DNA of 62,330 bases from Streptomyces sp. DvalAA-14 (GTDB lineage: Bacteria; Actinomycetota; Actinomycetes; Streptomycetales; Streptomycetaceae). Positions 44,140 through 51,116 of this stretch are shown here, in pieces. The number at the start of each line of letters is the position of its first letter. Position 1 is the first letter of the stretch. Both the position numbers and the translations under genes were made by a program. The stretch lies in NCBI RefSeq assembly GCF_900091855.1, contig NZ_FMCH01000543.1, positions 1 through 62,330 on the forward strand, read 5' to 3'. The notes below the pieces were generated by a model, which was not told the DNA's origin, did not search any database, and saw nothing but the letters and a program-made list of their open reading frames with translations.

Positions 44140-44703
44140 ATGCGGAGACTGCTCTACGGCATGAACGTGTCCCTGGACGGCTATGTCGCCGCGCCCGGCG
44201 ACGACCTCAGCTGGAGTAGGCCGAGCGACGAGCTGTTCCAGTGGTGGCTCGACCAGGAGAGCGCGATCAGCCTGTTGCTGTACGGGCGCAGGCTGTGGGA
44301 GAGCATGAGCGCCTACTGGCCGACCGGCGACCAGCAACCGGGCGCCACCCCAGCGCAGATCGAGTTCGCGCGGAACTGGCGGGACACGCCAAAGGTGGTG
44401 TTCTCCTCGACGGTCGACAAGGTCGACTGGAACGCTCGCCTGGTCGCCGGCGACGCGGTCGCGGAGATCACTCGGCTCAAGGCCGAGGACGGTGGGCCGA
44501 TGCGGGTCGGTGGCGCAGCGCTCGCCGGGGCGGCGATGCGGGCCGGCCTGATCGACGAGTACGCGATCGTCACCCATCCGGTCCTGGTGGGTGACGGCAC
44601 ACCGTTCTTCGCCGCGCTGGAAAGCTGGGCGAACGTGAACCTGGTGGAAACACGGACGTTTCCCGCCGGCGTGCTCCTGACCAGGTACGAGACGAGGCGC
44701 TGA
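44140..44703 (+). CDS. Dihydrofolate-reductase-like protein (RibD C-terminal family)
   Basis: A 187-residue protein typical of the YyaP/YwjB group: MNVSLDGYVAAPGDDLSW at the start, LLLYGRRLWESMSAYW, then KVVFSSTVDKVDW, a Gly-rich cofactor loop (MRVGGAALAGAAMRAGLIDE) and HPVLVGDGTPFF. It should be a NADPH-dependent reductase; the substrate is unknown, and few members act on dihydrofolate. GGAAGG precedes ATG 44140. Transposase fragments flank it on both sides. Confidence 0.88.
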   Translation: MRRLLYGMNVSLDGYVAAPGDDLSWSRPSDELFQWWLDQESAISLLLYGRRLWESMSAYWPTGDQQPGATPAQIEFARNWRDTPKVVFSSTVDKVDWNARLVAGDAVAEITRLKAEDGGPMRVGGAALAGAAMRAGLIDEYAIVTHPVLVGDGTPFFAALESWANVNLVETRTFPAGVLLTRYETRR

Positions 44704-44727
44704 AAGCGGCCCACGGCCAGGAGGAGC

Positions 44728-44983
44728 GGGCGTTTCGGATGCGGTCCTCGCCGCGGGCCCGGCGGCGGTTGCGGAGTTGGAGGTCGGCGAGCTGCCCGCT
44801 TTTGGTGTTGGTCGCCAAGCAGGTCAGGTGATCGCCGTCGAGGTCGGTGAAGCGCAACTGGGCTCCGGAGTGAGGCCATTCCTTGCGGACAAGGAGGAGC
44901 GGCTCCGCGTCGCCCAGCAGCTCGAAGAAGGTCGCGTTGTTGTCGTGGTTCGCGGCGACGGGGTGCGACAGAAGCTCTGCCAC
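44728..44983 (-). pseudogene. IS1380-family transposase fragment
   Basis: The minus strand carries NATFFELLGDAEPLLLVRKE, PHSGAQLRFTDLDGDHLTCL and RRARGEDRIRNAR, a conserved middle part of IS1380 transposases. Both ends are lost. Confidence 0.75.
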
Positions 44984-45003
44984 CTGTCTGACAACACTTA
45001 GGG

Positions 45004-45065
45004 AGAACGTTCTTTCTTGACAGGTGTGCCTGGAGGCGTAATGCTACGTCGAGAGAGAACGTTCA
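45004..45065 (+). promoter_or_regulatory. Promoter with two AGAACGTTC operators before the membrane-protein gene
   Basis: AGAACGTTCT (45004-45013) lies just before a perfect -35 TTGACA (45017-45022); TAATGC (45039-45044) follows at 16 bases as a likely -10. A second AGAACGTTCA is at 45056-45065, around the expected transcription start. The same operator/-35 arrangement occurs at 47551-47598. Confidence 0.65.
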
Positions 45066-45176
45066 GTCCTAGCACAAGCCCAGCGGCTCTGTCCTTGCCT
45101 CCCTGCGGAGGAGGGGACCGGGGCGTTGCCCGCGGCGTCGCACTTTCGCTCTTCGGTGCCGCTCGAGAGGATCATC

Positions 45177-45530
45177 TTGACCACCGTTGACTTGCCCTCT
45201 GCTCGCTCGCCTGCGGCTGTCGGCACACTCGCCCCGGCTTTGCGACAGCTGTACTTCGCACGGTCCGGCTTCGCCGCCGTTTGGGCCGCACTGCTGTTCG
45301 CCAACAAGTCCCACCTCGGGGCCGACCCGGCCGTCGCCGGCGCATCGGGAGTTCCGGCCTCCCTGCGTGTGTGGGGCGCCTGGGCGATCGTTTCCGGAGC
45401 CGGCCAGCTCATCGTGGGGGCGTCCGCCTCGAACCCGAAGCTGGCAACGGTGGGCGGCTACGCCATTCTCGGCGGAACATTTTTCCTCGTCTCGGCGCAG
45501 CGTCTCGGCCGCGCCCCCCGAGCGGACTGA
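45177..45530 (+). CDS. Small integral membrane protein, unknown family
   Basis: A 117-residue protein with three to four hydrophobic segments (FAAVWAALLFANKS, VWGAWAIVSGAGQLIVGASA, ATVGGYAILGGTFFLVSA). The size is like DoxX or DUF4267-type proteins, but I cannot assign one. TTG 45177 is the likely start since GAGAGG lies six bases upstream. It follows the AGAACGTTC promoter and is 87 bases before the molybdoenzyme gene, so the two are probably one transcript. Confidence 0.65.
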   Translation: MTTVDLPSARSPAAVGTLAPALRQLYFARSGFAAVWAALLFANKSHLGADPAVAGASGVPASLRVWGAWAIVSGAGQLIVGASASNPKLATVGGYAILGGTFFLVSAQRLGRAPRAD

Positions 45531-45617
45531 CATGGACACCGCGTTGTGTGACGACATCGTCTCCGCATTCGCCGTCCTGGTCCTCCCGGGCCGGGTTACC
45601 ACCTCGACGGAGGACAG

Positions 45618-47261
45618 ATGAGCGAGCAGCCCGGCGGCATGCAGGGCAAGGCCGTGGACAGTTCGGCGGCGGATCCGGAAGGAGAGGACGCACAGCAAGA
45701 GTCCGGTTCCCCGACAGGCAAGAGGCGCTTGGCCGCTCTCGGTGGGTGGATCGCGCGTGGGGCGCTGGTCGGCCTGGTGGCTGCCGGCGCTGGGCTGGCG
45801 GCGGGCGAACTGGTTGCGGTGGCTACCGGAGCAGAGTCTTCGCCTGCGGTGGCGGCCGGGACCTGGGCGATCAGCGTCACGCCCACGTGGCTTGAGCAGT
45901 TCGCGATCCGCAACTTCGGCAGCAATGACAAGCTGGCGCTGCAGACCGGGGTCTATGTGACGGTGGCGTTGGGGGCGGCCGGCCTCGGTGTGCTGGCCCG
46001 CGCTCGGCTGACCATTGCGAGCGTCCTGACCGCGGTGTTCGGCGTGGTCGGTGGAATCGCCGCGGTCACGCGACCGGCCGCGAATACCAGTTGGCTGCTT
46101 CCCTCGCTGCTCGCCGGACTCGTGGCGGCGTCGGTGATGCGCTGGCTGACGACCATGTCACTGAAGGAATCGGCCCCTTCTGCCGAGTCGAGCGGGAGGC
46201 GCCGCTTCGTGCTCGGCACGTTGGGTACGGCTGCGGGCGCGCTCGTCGCCGGATTTGGCGGCGACGCGTGGATCAAAAAGCGCTACGACGTTTCGGCGGC
46301 GCGCGCGAAGGTGGTGCTGCCGGTCCCGGCGACCGTGCTGCCCCAACCGCCCGCCTCTGTGCACCCGGACGTGAAGGGGCTCGGGTCGTTTTTCACTCCG
46401 ACCTCTCAGTTCTACCGGGTGGACACGGCGCTTGCTGTCCCTCGGGTGGACCCGGGCTCCTGGAAGCTGAAGATCCACGGCATGGTGGACCGCCCGTTCG
46501 AGATCACCTTCGAGGAGTTGCTCTCCTACAGGTTCGAGGAACACGACATGACCTTGACCTGCGTGTCGAACCCGGTGGGCGGACCGTACGTCGGCAACGC
46601 GCGGTGGCTCGGCACGCCATTGGCACCGCTGTTGCGCCGCGCCGGCGTCCGCCGCGGGGCGGACATGCTCTTGTCCACCTCGACCGACGGCATGACGATC
46701 GGCTCACCGGTCGAAGCGGTGCTCGACGGCCGGCAGGCAATGCTGGCGATCGCGATGAACGGTGAGGCACTGCCGATCGAGCACGGGTTCCCGTGCCGGA
46801 TGCTGATCCCCGGCCTGTACGGATACGTGTCGGCCACCAAGTGGTTGACGGATCTGGACGTCACCACGTTCGCCTCCTCCGACGCATACTGGACGCCGCG
46901 TGGTTATTCGCCGCAGGCCCCGGTCAAGACGGCGTCCAGGATCGACGTGCCGGCTACCGGGGCGACGGTATCGGCCGGGACCGTGGTGCTCGCCGGCACG
47001 GCCTGGGCTACCCACCGGGGCCTCGCGGCGGTAGAAGTGCAGATCGACAACGGGGCCTGGCGGGAGGCGATGTTGGCGACGTCGGACACCCCGGACACCT
47101 GGCGGCAATGGTCGTATCGGTGGGCGAATGCTCCCAAGGGTTCGCATAAGGTCAAGGTGCGCGCGACCGACGGCACCGGCACGGTGCAGACCTCGGCCGT
47201 CCAGGATGTGGTGCCGAACGGCTCCACGGGTTACCACACCATCACCGTCAAGGTTTCCTGA
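45618..47261 (+). CDS. Membrane-anchored sulfite-oxidase-like molybdopterin oxidoreductase
   Basis: A 547-residue protein. The N-terminal 190 residues hold about four to five membrane helices (ALVGLVAAGAGLAAGELVAV; VYVTVALGAAGLGVLARARL). A basic RRRFVLGTLGTAAGALVAGF stretch follows. The sulfite-oxidase-type Moco domain (about 225-430) includes MTLTCVSNPVGGPYVGNARW with the molybdenum-ligand Cys and MLIPGLYGYVSATKWL. A C-terminal Mo-co dimerisation domain ends the protein. It should carry out oxygen-atom transfer at the outer face of the membrane. ATG 45618 follows GGAGGACA. It lies between a small membrane protein and a COG4315-like lipoprotein, suggesting a redox module. Confidence 0.92.
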   Translation: MSEQPGGMQGKAVDSSAADPEGEDAQQESGSPTGKRRLAALGGWIARGALVGLVAAGAGLAAGELVAVATGAESSPAVAAGTWAISVTPTWLEQFAIRNFGSNDKLALQTGVYVTVALGAAGLGVLARARLTIASVLTAVFGVVGGIAAVTRPAANTSWLLPSLLAGLVAASVMRWLTTMSLKESAPSAESSGRRRFVLGTLGTAAGALVAGFGGDAWIKKRYDVSAARAKVVLPVPATVLPQPPASVHPDVKGLGSFFTPTSQFYRVDTALAVPRVDPGSWKLKIHGMVDRPFEITFEELLSYRFEEHDMTLTCVSNPVGGPYVGNARWLGTPLAPLLRRAGVRRGADMLLSTSTDGMTIGSPVEAVLDGRQAMLAIAMNGEALPIEHGFPCRMLIPGLYGYVSATKWLTDLDVTTFASSDAYWTPRGYSPQAPVKTASRIDVPATGATVSAGTVVLAGTAWATHRGLAAVEVQIDNGAWREAMLATSDTPDTWRQWSYRWANAPKGSHKVKVRATDGTGTVQTSAVQDVVPNGSTGYHTITVKVS

Positions 47262-47550
47262 CCGGCGGCGAGGGCGGTGTGCGACACGACCGGGCGTCCA
47301 GCCGCGTCCGCTCGGCCCGTCTGCTGCCCGCGGTGGTCTCCGTCCCGCCTCAACGTCTCACCTGCGCTTGAGGGTTGGTCGAGACCCGTCCATGACCGGT
47401 AGGCCGGCCTAGGCGACGACTCGGTATCGCCTCGGTATCGCCTTGTTCGCCGGAGCAGGCTCGCGAGCCCGATGTGGGCGTTCGTTGCAGGCGTCGACCA
47501 AGCGGCATCACAGGGCGCTGTTCTTGGCCCCGTTGGCGCGTCTCGATCTG

Positions 47551-47598
47551 CAAGATAGAACGTTCGGTCTTGACTTACGCTTTGAGACACATTAGATT
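47551..47598 (+). promoter_or_regulatory. Promoter and operator before the lipoprotein gene
   Basis: A near-perfect 22-bp palindrome spans 47551-47572: CAAGA arms (CAAGA/TCTTG) around AGAACGTTCG. It overlaps the -35 TTGACT (47570-47575); TAGATT (47593-47598) is the -10 at 17 bases. A TetR-family repressor is the usual binder of such sites. No such regulator gene is adjacent. Confidence 0.7.
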
Positions 47599-47669
47599 GA
47601 CCGCTGTATCGAATGCGACATATGCGGTTCGGTGAATCAGTTTTATCGCAAATAGGTAAGGACGGTTTC

Positions 47670-48224
47670 ATGTCCCGTAGGACTTCAGTGCGAACGGTTG
47701 GCTTCGCCCTGTCACTCGCTGCCTTGGCGACGTTCGCGGCAGCATGCGGCAGCTCATCCGATGACTCATCGGCTGCTGCCCCCAAGACGAGTGCGGCGAG
47801 TTCGGCCGACTCAGGTTCGACGACGGCTTCAGCGGCGCCGAACTCGGCCGACTCGGATTCGAAGCTGGTCTTGAAGACCGCGAAAGGAAGTGCCGGCATC
47901 TGGCTCACGGACTCTGCTGGACGCACGCTGTACTCGTACACCAAGGACAAGGCAAACGCGTCCAACTGCTACGACGCGTGCGCCACGAAGTGGCCCCCGC
48001 TCACGACGACCAAAGCGGTGACTGTGACCGGCCAGTACACCGTGCCGAAAAATCTGGGCACCATCACCCGGACGGACGGCAAAAAGCAGGTCACCTACGG
48101 CGGCCACCCGCTGTACTACTTCACGGGCGACACCGCTCCCAACCAGATCAAGGGCCAGGGCGTCGACGGTTCATGGTTCCTCATCGGACCGATCGCCAAC
48201 ATCATGAACGGGACCAAGCCGTAA
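47670..48224 (+). CDS. COG4315-like secreted repeat lipoprotein
   Basis: A 184-residue lipoprotein. Signal peptide with lipobox TFAAACGSS (Cys about residue 26), a Ser/Ala/Asp-rich linker of about 45 residues, then a paired domain: [20 protein letters not shown] with [14 protein letters not shown], and [20 protein letters not shown]. These LYTF-type repeats with a CxxxC motif are found in COG4315 proteins of unknown function, often near molybdoenzymes or cytochromes. AAGGA lies about eight bases before ATG 47670. It has its own promoter with the operator shared with the 45-kb genes. Confidence 0.87.
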
Positions 48225-48299
48225 CAACCGCCGCATGGTGCTACGGCGCTTGGAGCATGACTCGCGTGGCGCTTCGCATGTTGGTTTGGTATGTGCCGT

Positions 48300-48410
48300 A
48301 TAGCAGGGCGGCCTTCGTCTGAACACGACACCGGCTCCAGTCCAGTTCCCCGCGCGCGCCGAGTTCGTCCAGGACCAGCCGGTACAGCTTGGCGATGACT
48401 ACCGAATCAC
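48300..48410 (-). pseudogene. Trace of an IS5-type transposase
   Basis: A minus-strand frame reads VIAKLYRLVLDELGARGELD and WSRC, the conserved segment just before the first catalytic Asp in IS5 transposases of Streptomyces. Only about 35 residues remain. Between here and 48856 I see no other gene. Confidence 0.5.
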
Positions 48411-49085: not shown

Positions 49086-51116
49086 GTGAGCACTCCTCTG
49101 GAATTGGTGGCCCTGGTCAGCGCTTCCCGCACTGTCGTCGGATGGACCGAGGCGGCCGAGCGTCTGTGGGGCTACTCCGCCGAGGAGGCGATGAACCGTC
49201 CTGTCGACCATTTGCTGATGGCCGGCGGCGACTCCGGTTGTGCCTCTGCCATGGAGCAGTCGCGGACGTGGTCCGGGACCGTTGAACTCCGGCAGCCTGA
49301 CGGCCGGGGACGGACGATGGAGCTCCGGGTGAGCCCTTTTTCGGTGGGGGAAGCCGCAGGCGACTGGTTCGTGTGGGAGGCAGGTCCCATCGAGCCTCCC
49401 GCCCTTTCGAGTCCGGACGCCGTCGTGCCGAAAGCACTCTTCGACCACGCGCCGATGGGTGCGCTGGTACTGGACCGGGATTTGCGCTGTATCTGGTCCA
49501 ATCAGGCGATCAACGAGATGGACTTCATTCCGGGGGGTCCGCAGCCGGGACGACGGATCACTGAGCTGCTGCCGGGCGGGGGTGCGGAAGCGCTTGAGGC
49601 AGAGATGCGCCGCGTTTTCGAAAGCGGTGCGCCGTCCCTGGACCAGGAGTGGATTCCGCCGGCGGTAGCAGGAGAGACCGGGAAGCCCCCTCTCTCGCTG
49701 TCGCTGTTCCCGCTGGACGAATCGGACGGCAGGGCACGGGGAGTGTGCCTGATGGCCGTGGACACGGGCGAGAGCGGCTCACGGCGGAGGCTGGAGCTCC
49801 TTGCCGAGGCCGGAACCCGCATCGGCAGCACCCTCGACGTCATGCGCACCGCGCAGGAACTGGCGGACACCGCGGTGCCGGCGCTCGCGGACTTCGTCAC
49901 CGTCGAACTTGCTGACACCGTCATTCCCGACGAGGAGCCTCTGGGACGCCTGGACGCCTCCAACGTCAGCGTTCCCGCCTTCTACCGCGGGGGGATGGCC
50001 TCGGTCCACCCCGGGGTTCCCGAGGCCCTGTGGCAGCGGGGGATGCCGGTCTTCGTCCCCCCGACGTCCCCCTACACCGGCGTCAGAGACTCCGGGCAAT
50101 CCCACTTCGAACCGGTCATCGACACCTCGCCCGGGACCTGGCGCGACAACGACCCCGACCGGGCCAGGGTCGTCAGGCAGTTCGGACTGCATTCGCTGAT
50201 GATCGTTCCCCTCCGGGCGCGCGGGGTGCTGCTCGGCATCGCCTCATTCGTACGCGGCGAGAATCCGGCCCCCTTCAGCAGGGACGATCTCCGCCTCGCT
50301 GAGGGGCTGGCGGCCCGGGCTTCGCTGAGCTTGGACAACGCGCGCCGCTACAGCCGGGAACGTACCGCGGCGCTCGCACTGCAGCGTGACCTGCTGCCGC
50401 ACCAGCTGCAGAGCGGCCAGGCCGTCGAGGTGGCCTCCCGCTACCTGCCCGCCGATACCCGGGACGGAGTGGGAGGCGACTGGTTCGATGCGATTCCGAT
50501 GCGGCACGACAGGGTCGCCCTGGTGGTCGGCGATGTCGCCGGCCACGGGATCAACGCGGCTGCGACCATGGGGCGGGTCCGCATGGTGGTCAACACGCTC
50601 ACCAACCTGGAGCTGCCCCCGGACCAGGTGCTCAGGCGCCTGGACGAAGTCGTCGTGGGGTTGGCCAGGGACCGCCCCGAGGACGAGTTCACCACGCCCA
50701 TTGTCGGGGCCACCTGTGTCTATGTGGTGTACGACCCTGCCACCAGGCGATGCACGATGGCCAGCGCCGGGCATCCTCCGCCGGCCATCGTCACCCCCGA
50801 CGGAGACGTCGCATTCGCCGACGTGCCCGTTGGCGCGCCCGTCGGCGTCGGACTGGGAGACTTCCGCTCGATCGAAACGCGGTTGCCGGAGGGAAGCCTG
50901 ATCGCGCTCTACACCGACGGCCTGGTCGAGACCCGCGCGGACGACATGGACCACGGACTCGACCGATTGCGCGCCGCCCTCACCGCCCCTGCCGGGGCGC
51001 TGGAGGACCTCGCCACCGCGATCATCGACAACGTGCCCGCGCCCGGGCAGGCCGAGGACGACATGGCCCTCCTGCTCGCCCGAACCCTGACACCCACGCC
51101 ACGAGGCAGGCCGTGA
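49086..51116 (+). CDS. PAS-GAF-SpoIIE (RsbU-type) serine phosphatase
   Basis: A 676-residue multi-domain protein: a PAS domain (about 5-105, WTEAAERLWGYSAEEAMNR), a second PAS (about 115-225), a GAF domain (about 240-410, ending ARASLSLDNARRYSRERTAA) and a C-terminal PP2C/SpoIIE phosphatase. The phosphatase has metal-binding motifs VGGDWFDAIP, VVGDVAGHGINAAATMGRVR, ASAGHPPPAIV and LIALYTDGLVE with EDDMALLLAR. It should dephosphorylate an anti-anti-sigma factor in response to a signal bound by PAS or GAF. GTG 49086 has CGGAAG about 10 bases upstream. No RsbV/RsbW partner is adjacent. Confidence 0.92.
   Translation: MSTPLELVALVSASRTVVGWTEAAERLWGYSAEEAMNRPVDHLLMAGGDSGCASAMEQSRTWSGTVELRQPDGRGRTMELRVSPFSVGEAAGDWFVWEAGPIEPPALSSPDAVVPKALFDHAPMGALVLDRDLRCIWSNQAINEMDFIPGGPQPGRRITELLPGGGAEALEAEMRRVFESGAPSLDQEWIPPAVAGETGKPPLSLSLFPLDESDGRARGVCLMAVDTGESGSRRRLELLAEAGTRIGSTLDVMRTAQELADTAVPALADFVTVELADTVIPDEEPLGRLDASNVSVPAFYRGGMASVHPGVPEALWQRGMPVFVPPTSPYTGVRDSGQSHFEPVIDTSPGTWRDNDPDRARVVRQFGLHSLMIVPLRARGVLLGIASFVRGENPAPFSRDDLRLAEGLAARASLSLDNARRYSRERTAALALQRDLLPHQLQSGQAVEVASRYLPADTRDGVGGDWFDAIPMRHDRVALVVGDVAGHGINAAATMGRVRMVVNTLTNLELPPDQVLRRLDEVVVGLARDRPEDEFTTPIVGATCVYVVYDPATRRCTMASAGHPPPAIVTPDGDVAFADVPVGAPVGVGLGDFRSIETRLPEGSLIALYTDGLVETRADDMDHGLDRLRAALTAPAGALEDLATAIIDNVPAPGQAEDDMALLLARTLTPTPRGRP

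What the first reader, a model, noticed from the sequence alone, without database searches (positions are those of the whole stretch)
45004..47598. Shared AGAACGTTC operator ties a membrane protein, a molybdoenzyme and a lipoprotein into one module
The operator lies beside TTGACA at 45017 and overlaps TTGACT at 47570, with a third copy at 45056. The 47551 site is a 22-bp near-perfect palindrome. The genes encode a small membrane protein, a five-helix sulfite-oxidase-like enzyme and a COG4315-like lipoprotein, all at the cell envelope. Inference: an inducible extracytoplasmic redox or repair system. No regulator gene is adjacent.
Basis: partly seen in the sequence, partly recalled or inferred. 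Interest (0 to 1): 0.65.

Follow-up and report, generated by a model that had tools for sequence, protein, structure and literature searches.

The report
Trans-acting TetR regulon operators in Actinacidiphila
Three short mirror-image DNA sites in this soil bacterium are very probably the docking sites of a repressor encoded elsewhere in its genome, which appears to switch a membrane gene, a molybdenum enzyme and a lipoprotein on and off together with stress-type genes in Streptomyces relatives.

Summary
AGAACGTTC at 45004, 45056 and 47557 is the core of a longer palindrome, CnAGAnnGAACGTTCnnTCTnG: 3 sites in the window against 0.09 expected, and 59 sites in 35 genomes of the genus (inferred as Actinacidiphila) against 1 for the reversed pattern. 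The missing regulator exists in trans: two related TetR genes on other contigs carry the palindrome in their own promoter regions. TetR1, a close relative of solved chain 3g7r_A, is the likelier one: it accompanies the molybdoenzyme orthologue in 5 of 5 genus genomes. All 11 Streptomycetaceae orthologue loci of a named-genome scan carry operators; 48 more distant homologue loci and 7 orthologues outside the family carry none. Most operators are paired, 52 bp being the commonest spacing (20 of 49 pairs), around a TTGACA promoter. Neighbours elsewhere include a second SecY, a flavoprotein reductase, OsmC and AhpC/TSA. A cysteine invariant in 21 of 21 regulators aligns with NemR Cys106; TetR1 has a second where NemR has Lys175. 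Redox or electrophile sensing is plausible but untested; binding, signal and enzyme substrate remain open.

The parts
44998..45019 (+). Operator 1 (22-mer centred 45008/45009); right arm overlaps the -35 box
   Evidence: conserved upstream of orthologues
45017..45022 (+). -35 TTGACA
   Evidence: same place relative to operator 1 in relatives
45040..45045 (+). -10 candidate AATGCT, 17 bp spacer
   Evidence: GATGCT or AATGCT in the ten promoters aligned; not flagged by the consensus scan
45050..45071 (+). Operator 2 (centre 52 bp after operator 1), over the expected transcription start
45177..45530 (+). Small membrane protein (TTG start inferred from orthologues), homologous to DUF308-like membrane proteins, two in-frame internal deletions of 45 and 31 codons relative to A. 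oryziradicis
45618..47261 (+). Sulfite-oxidase-fold molybdoenzyme, N-terminal hydrophobic segments, twin-arginine-like RRRF at residue 194, candidate Mo-ligand Cys315
47551..47572 (+). Operator 3; right arm overlaps the -35 box of the lipoprotein promoter
   Evidence: operator before the lipoprotein in 9 of 11 orthologue loci
47570..47575 (+). -35 TTGACT
47593..47598 (+). -10 TAGATT, 17 bp spacer
47605..47620 (+). Second, different conserved palindrome (TGTATCGAATGCGACA here; TGTATCGANCGMTACA in most relatives), centred 51 bp after operator 3
   Evidence: role unknown
47670..48224 (+). Lipoprotein with Lipoprotein_15 domain (SCO0930 model below cut-off); lipobox near FAAAC by eye

Best explanation
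The three sites are operators of a TetR-family repressor encoded in trans, most likely TetR1 (G000 contig C76:25855-26439), a close relative of solved chain 3g7r_A. A dimer on operator 1 would cover the -35 box and a dimer on operator 2, about five helical turns away, would cover the start site; together they would shut the membrane-protein/molybdoenzyme promoter. Operator 3 would do the same for the lipoprotein. TetR1 has the palindrome just before its own start codon, so it would autoregulate. A signal, most likely an oxidant, quinone or other electrophile acting on the invariant cysteine (with the second cysteine in TetR1), would release it and induce the module together with second-SecY, flavoprotein-reductase and related genes. 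Shown by sequence comparison: palindrome, conservation, promoter geometry, TetR linkage and co-occurrence. Inferred: binding, repression, cooperation or looping, signal, enzyme substrate.
For: Palindrome enriched in window and genus (59 sites vs 1 reversed). TetR1 (2 mismatches or fewer from the 21-mer half, 3 in all) and TetR2 (sites with 1 and 3 mismatches) have it in their own promoter regions. In 35 genus genomes, TetR homologue (E<=1e-30) and palindrome (<=1 mismatch): both 18, TetR only 2, sites only 3, neither 12; Fisher p 5e-5 (genomes are related, so p is optimistic). Molybdoenzyme orthologues (77-100%) in 5 genomes, the window's own included, all with TetR1 at 77% or more. G010 and G033 show no match in the TetR2 identity range (where 93 of 148 and 93 of 141 first-look candidates were scored). 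In G001, operators at BBE-SecY2, TetR1 (3 mismatches there), membrane gene and enzyme/lipoprotein lie within 25 kb; in G024 TetR1 and the module lie within 15 kb. Operators at 11 of 11 Streptomycetaceae orthologue loci, 0 of 48 more distant homologue loci at <=2 mismatches. In loci not selected for spacing, 52 bp is the distance in 20 of 49 distinct pairs and 39 of 49 are 48-58 bp. Pair-plus-promoter pattern in 37 of 394 family genomes, reversed control 0. Divergent TetR-membrane gene pair with two operators on three Streptomyces plasmids. Cysteine in 21 of 21 regulators aligned, at NemR Cys106.
Against: No binding or expression data. Seven orthologue loci in Actinospica, Actinocrinis and Catenulispora (59-74%) have no operator, so the link is limited to Streptomycetaceae. 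Two genus genomes have a TetR homologue without sites at 1 mismatch (G005, an 87-residue partial hit; G032, which has weaker sites beside it) and three have sites without it. Lipoprotein operator missing in 2 of 11 orthologue loci, and the upstream pair is not next to the enzyme in 2 of 11. The pair-plus-promoter pattern is absent from 357 of 394 family genomes. The consensus scan does not flag the 45017 promoter. TetR1 and NemR align only globally (19% identity, no BLASTP hit), and a GC motif in this class need not be a redox switch. TetR2 or a further paralogue could also bind.
Confidence: 0.82

Rival explanations
1. Same operators and TetR regulon, but the inducer is a reversibly bound aromatic compound or catabolite, not a thiol-reactive species; the regulon serves aromatic catabolism.
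For: In G001, G024 and G033 the cluster near TetR1 holds FAD-monooxygenase-, extradiol-dioxygenase-, hydrolase- and hydroxy-oxovalerate-aldolase-like genes (named by eye from sequence starts); alpha/beta hydrolase and BBE oxidase members were confirmed by Pfam.
Against: The most frequent neighbours are the membrane protein and the regulator itself; OsmC and AhpC/TSA neighbours and the invariant cysteine point to redox.
Confidence: 0.35
2. The window promoters are controlled by TetR2 (C653) or by both repressors, not by TetR1 alone.
For: TetR2 has operators of the same type (1 and 3 mismatches) in its own promoter region and is 53% identical to TetR1.
Against: G010 and G033 keep the enzyme, the lipoprotein and operators but show no match in the TetR2 identity range (not every candidate was scored). 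TetR1, not TetR2, is clustered with the module in G001 and G024.
Confidence: 0.25
3. GAAC is part of an ECF sigma-factor (sigma-E type) promoter.
For: Some listed sigma-E promoters of S. coelicolor contain GGAACGTTC (passages of PMC6767563).
Against: The listed sigma-E promoters have CGTC about 17 bp on; by eye it is absent at the window sites. The palindrome is symmetric over about 20 bp and often sits at a fixed place before TTGACA.
Confidence: 0.03
4. A LexA (SOS) box or a chance palindrome.
For: Shared GAAC...GTTC half-sites (the Gram-positive LexA box GAACNNNNGTTC is recalled, not from a call).
Against: No spacer between the half-sites; recurrent association with TetR and membrane genes; chance disfavoured.
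Confidence: 0.02

Closest known systems
PDB 3g7r (putative transcriptional regulator; recalled as S. coelicolor SCO4454)
   Same: TetR1 aligns over 182 residues, E 7e-90, both cysteines included
   Different: No operator, regulon or ligand found in print: the words SCO4454 and 3G7R each occur in 0 papers of the library
E. coli NemR-nemA-gloA
   Same: TetR-family repressor of detoxifying enzymes with a cysteine at the Cys106 position
   Different: 19% identity; TetR1 has Cys, the other regulators Tyr or Ala, where NemR has Lys175; different targets
E. coli RclR-RclABC
   Same: A flavoprotein disulfide reductase together with a membrane protein (passages of PMC7464077; membrane gene next to FADb here)
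   Different: RclR is recalled as an AraC-type activator; the flavoprotein here scores 146 bits where RclA needs 740
SorA/SoxC sulfite dehydrogenases
   Same: Best NCBIfam and PDB matches of the molybdoenzyme
   Different: Far below equivalog cut-offs (115 of 420, 102 of 600 bits); N-terminal hydrophobic segments and twin-arginine-like motif

Membership tests
TetR-family repressor (TetR1/TetR2) | TetR_N helix-turn-helix domain | tested here: met
   E 2e-15 and 6e-13, above cut-off
TetR-family repressor (TetR1/TetR2) | Palindromic operator in own promoter region | tested here: met
TetR-family repressor (TetR1/TetR2) | Binds the operator and is released by a signal | not testable with these tools
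   needs bench work
NemR-type thiol switch | Cysteine at the Cys106 position | tested here: met
   on a 19%-identity alignment
NemR-type thiol switch | Lysine partner (Lys175) | tested here: not met
   Cys in 9 of 9 TetR1 rows; Tyr (10) or Ala (2) in the 12 other rows
NemR family | Sequence orthology | tested here: not met
   no BLASTP alignment at E<=100
Sulfite dehydrogenase SoxC/SorA | Equivalog score cut-off | tested here: not met
Sulfite-oxidase fold superfamily | Oxidored_molyb domain with conserved cysteine | tested here: met
   Cys315 in 12 of 12 rows
MsrP methionine sulfoxide reductase | Equivalog score cut-off | tested here: not met
   36 of 207 bits
SCO0930 lipoprotein | Equivalog score cut-off | tested here: not met
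   120 of 275 bits; Lipoprotein_15 domain met
DUF308 (membrane protein) | Pfam cut-off | tested here: not met
   window protein no hit; homologues 21.9 and 23.5 bits, cut-off 25

The most novel reading that the evidence does not exclude
A Streptomycetaceae thiol-switch TetR, in which a Cys-Cys pair (C108, C170) replaces the NemR Cys-Lys pair, controls an envelope-redox regulon through paired operators five helical turns apart; the regulon couples a Tat-type molybdoenzyme and a lipoprotein to a second SecY and a flavoprotein disulfide reductase, so that secretion capacity and extracytoplasmic redox repair are induced together.
Probability: 0.28. Interest if true: 0.72.

Novelty: new member of a known kind. 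Interest (0 to 1): 0.52.

Why it matters
It gives a candidate operator, promoter architecture and target list to a TetR subfamily whose solved relative (3g7r) has no function in the papers searched, and it makes the signal directly testable. A repressor that controls a second SecY together with a molybdoenzyme and a lipoprotein would link secretion to envelope redox stress in Streptomyces-type bacteria. The 52-bp paired arrangement is a ready test case for cooperative or looping repression.

Tried and rejected
The 9-mer with one mismatch was no use as a statistic. A LexA box and a sigma-E promoter were considered and rejected (and the sequence). Searching the second palindrome in the window's genome found no second regulator and no enrichment (26 places against 104 for the reversed pattern). 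A viral-contig scan for the regulator gave no relative, so I held no locus with TetR1 of the kind that structure prediction accepts, and no structure was predicted. The plasmid search for the molybdoenzyme found 657 records, all under 60% identity. Papers (search listings only unless said): SCO4454 and 3G7R none; AGAACGTTCT with TetR and Streptomyces gave 20,433 papers holding two of the three terms, and the 10 listed had no AGAACGTTCT (this does not exclude others); GAACGTTC with Streptomyces gave 9, of which I read passages of PMC6767563 only; SCO0930 three papers; DUF308-TetR-Streptomyces three, none on this by title; COG4315 none; a redox-TetR-Streptomyces query nine, passages of PMC12421854 read; NemR query 21, 8 listed, passages of PMC7464077 read. 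Alignment A1 held a lipoprotein by my slip in coordinates; it was replaced by A2 and is not used. The cluster and spacing counts (116 clusters; 33 of 71 distances) counted some loci twice when fetched in both orientations; one search recounts them (109 clusters; 20 of 49 pairs) and is the one used.

Full report
What is there. AGAACGTTC occurs exactly at 45004, 45056 and 47557. Read out further, all three are copies of a longer palindrome, CnAGAnnGAACGTTCnnTCTnG. With up to 2 mismatches in AGANNGAACGTTCNNTCT the window holds these 3 and no other; 0.09 are expected and none of 100 shuffles reaches 3. In the whole 7.94-Mb genome the same pattern has 14 places against 1 for the reversed pattern. 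The two sites at 45.0 kb are a pair with centres 52 bp apart. Operator 1 overlaps the -35 box TTGACA and operator 2 lies over the expected start; between them are a 17-bp spacer and AATGCT. Operator 3 overlaps TTGACT of a TTGACT-17-TAGATT promoter, the only promoter-like hit of the consensus scan in 44700-48400; that scan does not flag the 45017 promoter.

The regulator. The pattern search of the genome led to two TetR genes on other contigs. TetR1 (C76:25855-26439) has the palindrome ending 17 bp before its start codon. TetR2 (C653:33630-34343) has a pair (1 and 3 mismatches) between itself and a divergent membrane gene. Both have TetR_N domains and are 53% identical. TetR1 aligns with solved chain 3g7r_A over 182 residues, E 7e-90; that this is S. 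coelicolor SCO4454 is recalled. Other operators in the genome precede a second SecY and a membrane-protein plus pyridine nucleotide-disulfide oxidoreductase gene pair; a further pair lies about 270 bp before an SbtR-like TetR gene with a transporter. Of the 14 places, a few lie at unrelated-looking loci (C572, C638, C653:115718) and were not studied. The window membrane protein is homologous to the membrane proteins at the other two loci.

Genus. With up to 1 mismatch, 21 of 35 genus genomes hold the palindrome, 59 sites in all, against 1 site in one genome for the reversed pattern. A TetR1 homologue at E<=1e-30 is in 20 of 35. Both occur in 18, TetR only in 2, sites only in 3, neither in 12 (Fisher p 5e-5; the genomes are related, so p is optimistic). 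The molybdoenzyme orthologue (77-100%) is in 5 of 35, each time with TetR1 at 77% or more; 13 other matches are at 48-54%. G010 and G033 show no match in the TetR2 identity range, though not every first-look candidate was scored. In G001 operators at a BBE-type oxidase and SecY2, at TetR1 (3 mismatches), at the membrane gene and at enzyme/lipoprotein lie within 25 kb. In G024 TetR1 and the module lie within 15 kb.

Named genomes. A scan with the enzyme gave 66 loci. Eleven Streptomycetaceae orthologue loci (78-90%) all carry operators at up to 2 mismatches. Seven in Actinospica, Actinocrinis and Catenulispora (59-74%) and 48 more distant homologue loci carry none at that threshold; the reversed pattern gave 0. 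One of the 48 (L116) has a 3-mismatch site. LIPO15 homologues lie within the fetched stretch in 11 of 11, 2 of 7 and 0 of 48. The upstream pair, 52 bp apart, is close to the enzyme in 9 of 11 (L100 has one site; L103 has its pair 4.3 kb upstream with a membrane gene), and the lipoprotein operator is in 9 of 11.

Architecture. Among 82 distinct sites at up to 1 mismatch in loci not chosen for spacing, 60 have a partner within 200 bp; of the 49 distinct pairs 20 are 52 bp apart and 39 are 48-58 bp apart. TTGACA is matched in at least 5 of 6 positions at its fixed place in 32 of 81 oriented ends (each pair has two ends), and a spacer of 17 fits best in 25 of these 32. A pattern for the whole promoter is in 37 of 394 Streptomycetaceae genomes (54 rows, one place listed on both strands), reversed control 0. 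The collected sites give a symmetric profile (sites were selected by the pattern, so the core is inflated). Three named Streptomyces plasmids carry the divergent TetR-membrane gene pair with two operators 52, 52 and 59 bp apart.

Regulon. Of 109 distinct operator clusters in the fetched loci, neighbours are membrane protein 42, TetR 33, lipoprotein 9, alpha/beta hydrolase 7, molybdoenzyme 5, SAM methyltransferase 4, OsmC 4, SecY2 3, BBE oxidase 3, MarR 3, AhpC/TSA 2; 53 have the membrane protein or TetR and 86 at least one of these families (recounting). One member each of the hydrolase, methyltransferase, OsmC, BBE, MarR and AhpC groups was scanned with Pfam. Loci fetched for the enzyme or by the pair pattern raise their counts; the 52 clusters from the genus search and own genome give 16, 15, 3, 7, 1, 1, 2, 2, 1, 0 and 2 in the same order. 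Aromatic-catabolism names in G001, G024 and G033 are by eye from sequence starts, apart from those.

Signal. All 21 regulators aligned keep a cysteine in RGC(A/P/T)F. In an alignment with E. coli NemR (19% identity, no BLASTP hit) it falls on Cys106, which the review PMC7464077 names as the residue that responds to reactive chlorine, bonded to Lys175 (passages). At the Lys175 position the 9 TetR1 rows have a second cysteine and the other 12 have tyrosine (10) or alanine (2). This suggests a Cys-Cys switch in TetR1, a prediction only.

Genes. The enzyme has Oxidored_molyb and Big_7 domains, is nearest SorA among solved structures, but far below every sulfite dehydrogenase or MsrP cut-off listed. 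It has hydrophobic N-terminal segments, the last preceded by a twin-arginine-like RRRF; that motif and Cys315 are in 12 of 12 rows. Its substrate is unknown. The membrane protein has lost 45 and 31 codons in frame relative to A. oryziradicis, and only one segment passes a simple hydropathy threshold, so it may be a remnant.

Verdict. The operator module is real, conserved and linked by comparison to a TetR regulator in trans. Binding and induction remain to be shown. It looks like a new, undescribed member of a known kind (TetR repressor regulon); 'undescribed' rests in an open-licence library only.

Noticed in passing
window 45177-45530: Membrane protein gene has two in-frame internal deletions (135 and 93 bp) relative to A. 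oryziradicis; possibly a remnant.
   Followed up: partly
window 47605-47620: A second palindrome, TGTATCGANCGMTACA in most relatives, centred 51 bp after the lipoprotein operator. In 6 of 7 genomes searched (up to 1 mismatch) it lies at the lipoprotein promoter, with at most one other place each; the reversed pattern occurs about as often as those other places. No regulator found.
   Followed up: partly
L032:3491-4801 (G000:C76): A second-SecY gene, above the cut-off of the SecY model, behind an operator pair; relatives at 85-86% in G033 (behind a pair) and G001 (behind the BBE gene).
   Followed up: partly
L036 (G000:C564:8512-8588); L077, L078: Similar but different palindromes (GGAACGTTCC, AAGAAGGAACGTTCGCTTT) in pairs, probably other operator families.
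   Followed up: no
L065, L085: A further TetR subgroup (about 45-47% to TetR1/2) with the palindrome between it and an AhpC/TSA-type gene.
   Followed up: partly
L242: A Sinorhizobium plasmid TetR 45% identical to TetR1 has no such operator in the stretch but a different palindrome, ACAGACCTGTCTGT, before its start.
   Followed up: no
G010:C323:41820-42386: A TetR1 copy with one in-frame stop, in a genome with two other TetR1-like copies.
   Followed up: no
window 49086-51116: Large PAS-GAF-SpoIIE phosphatase gene downstream of the module, not examined further.
   Followed up: no
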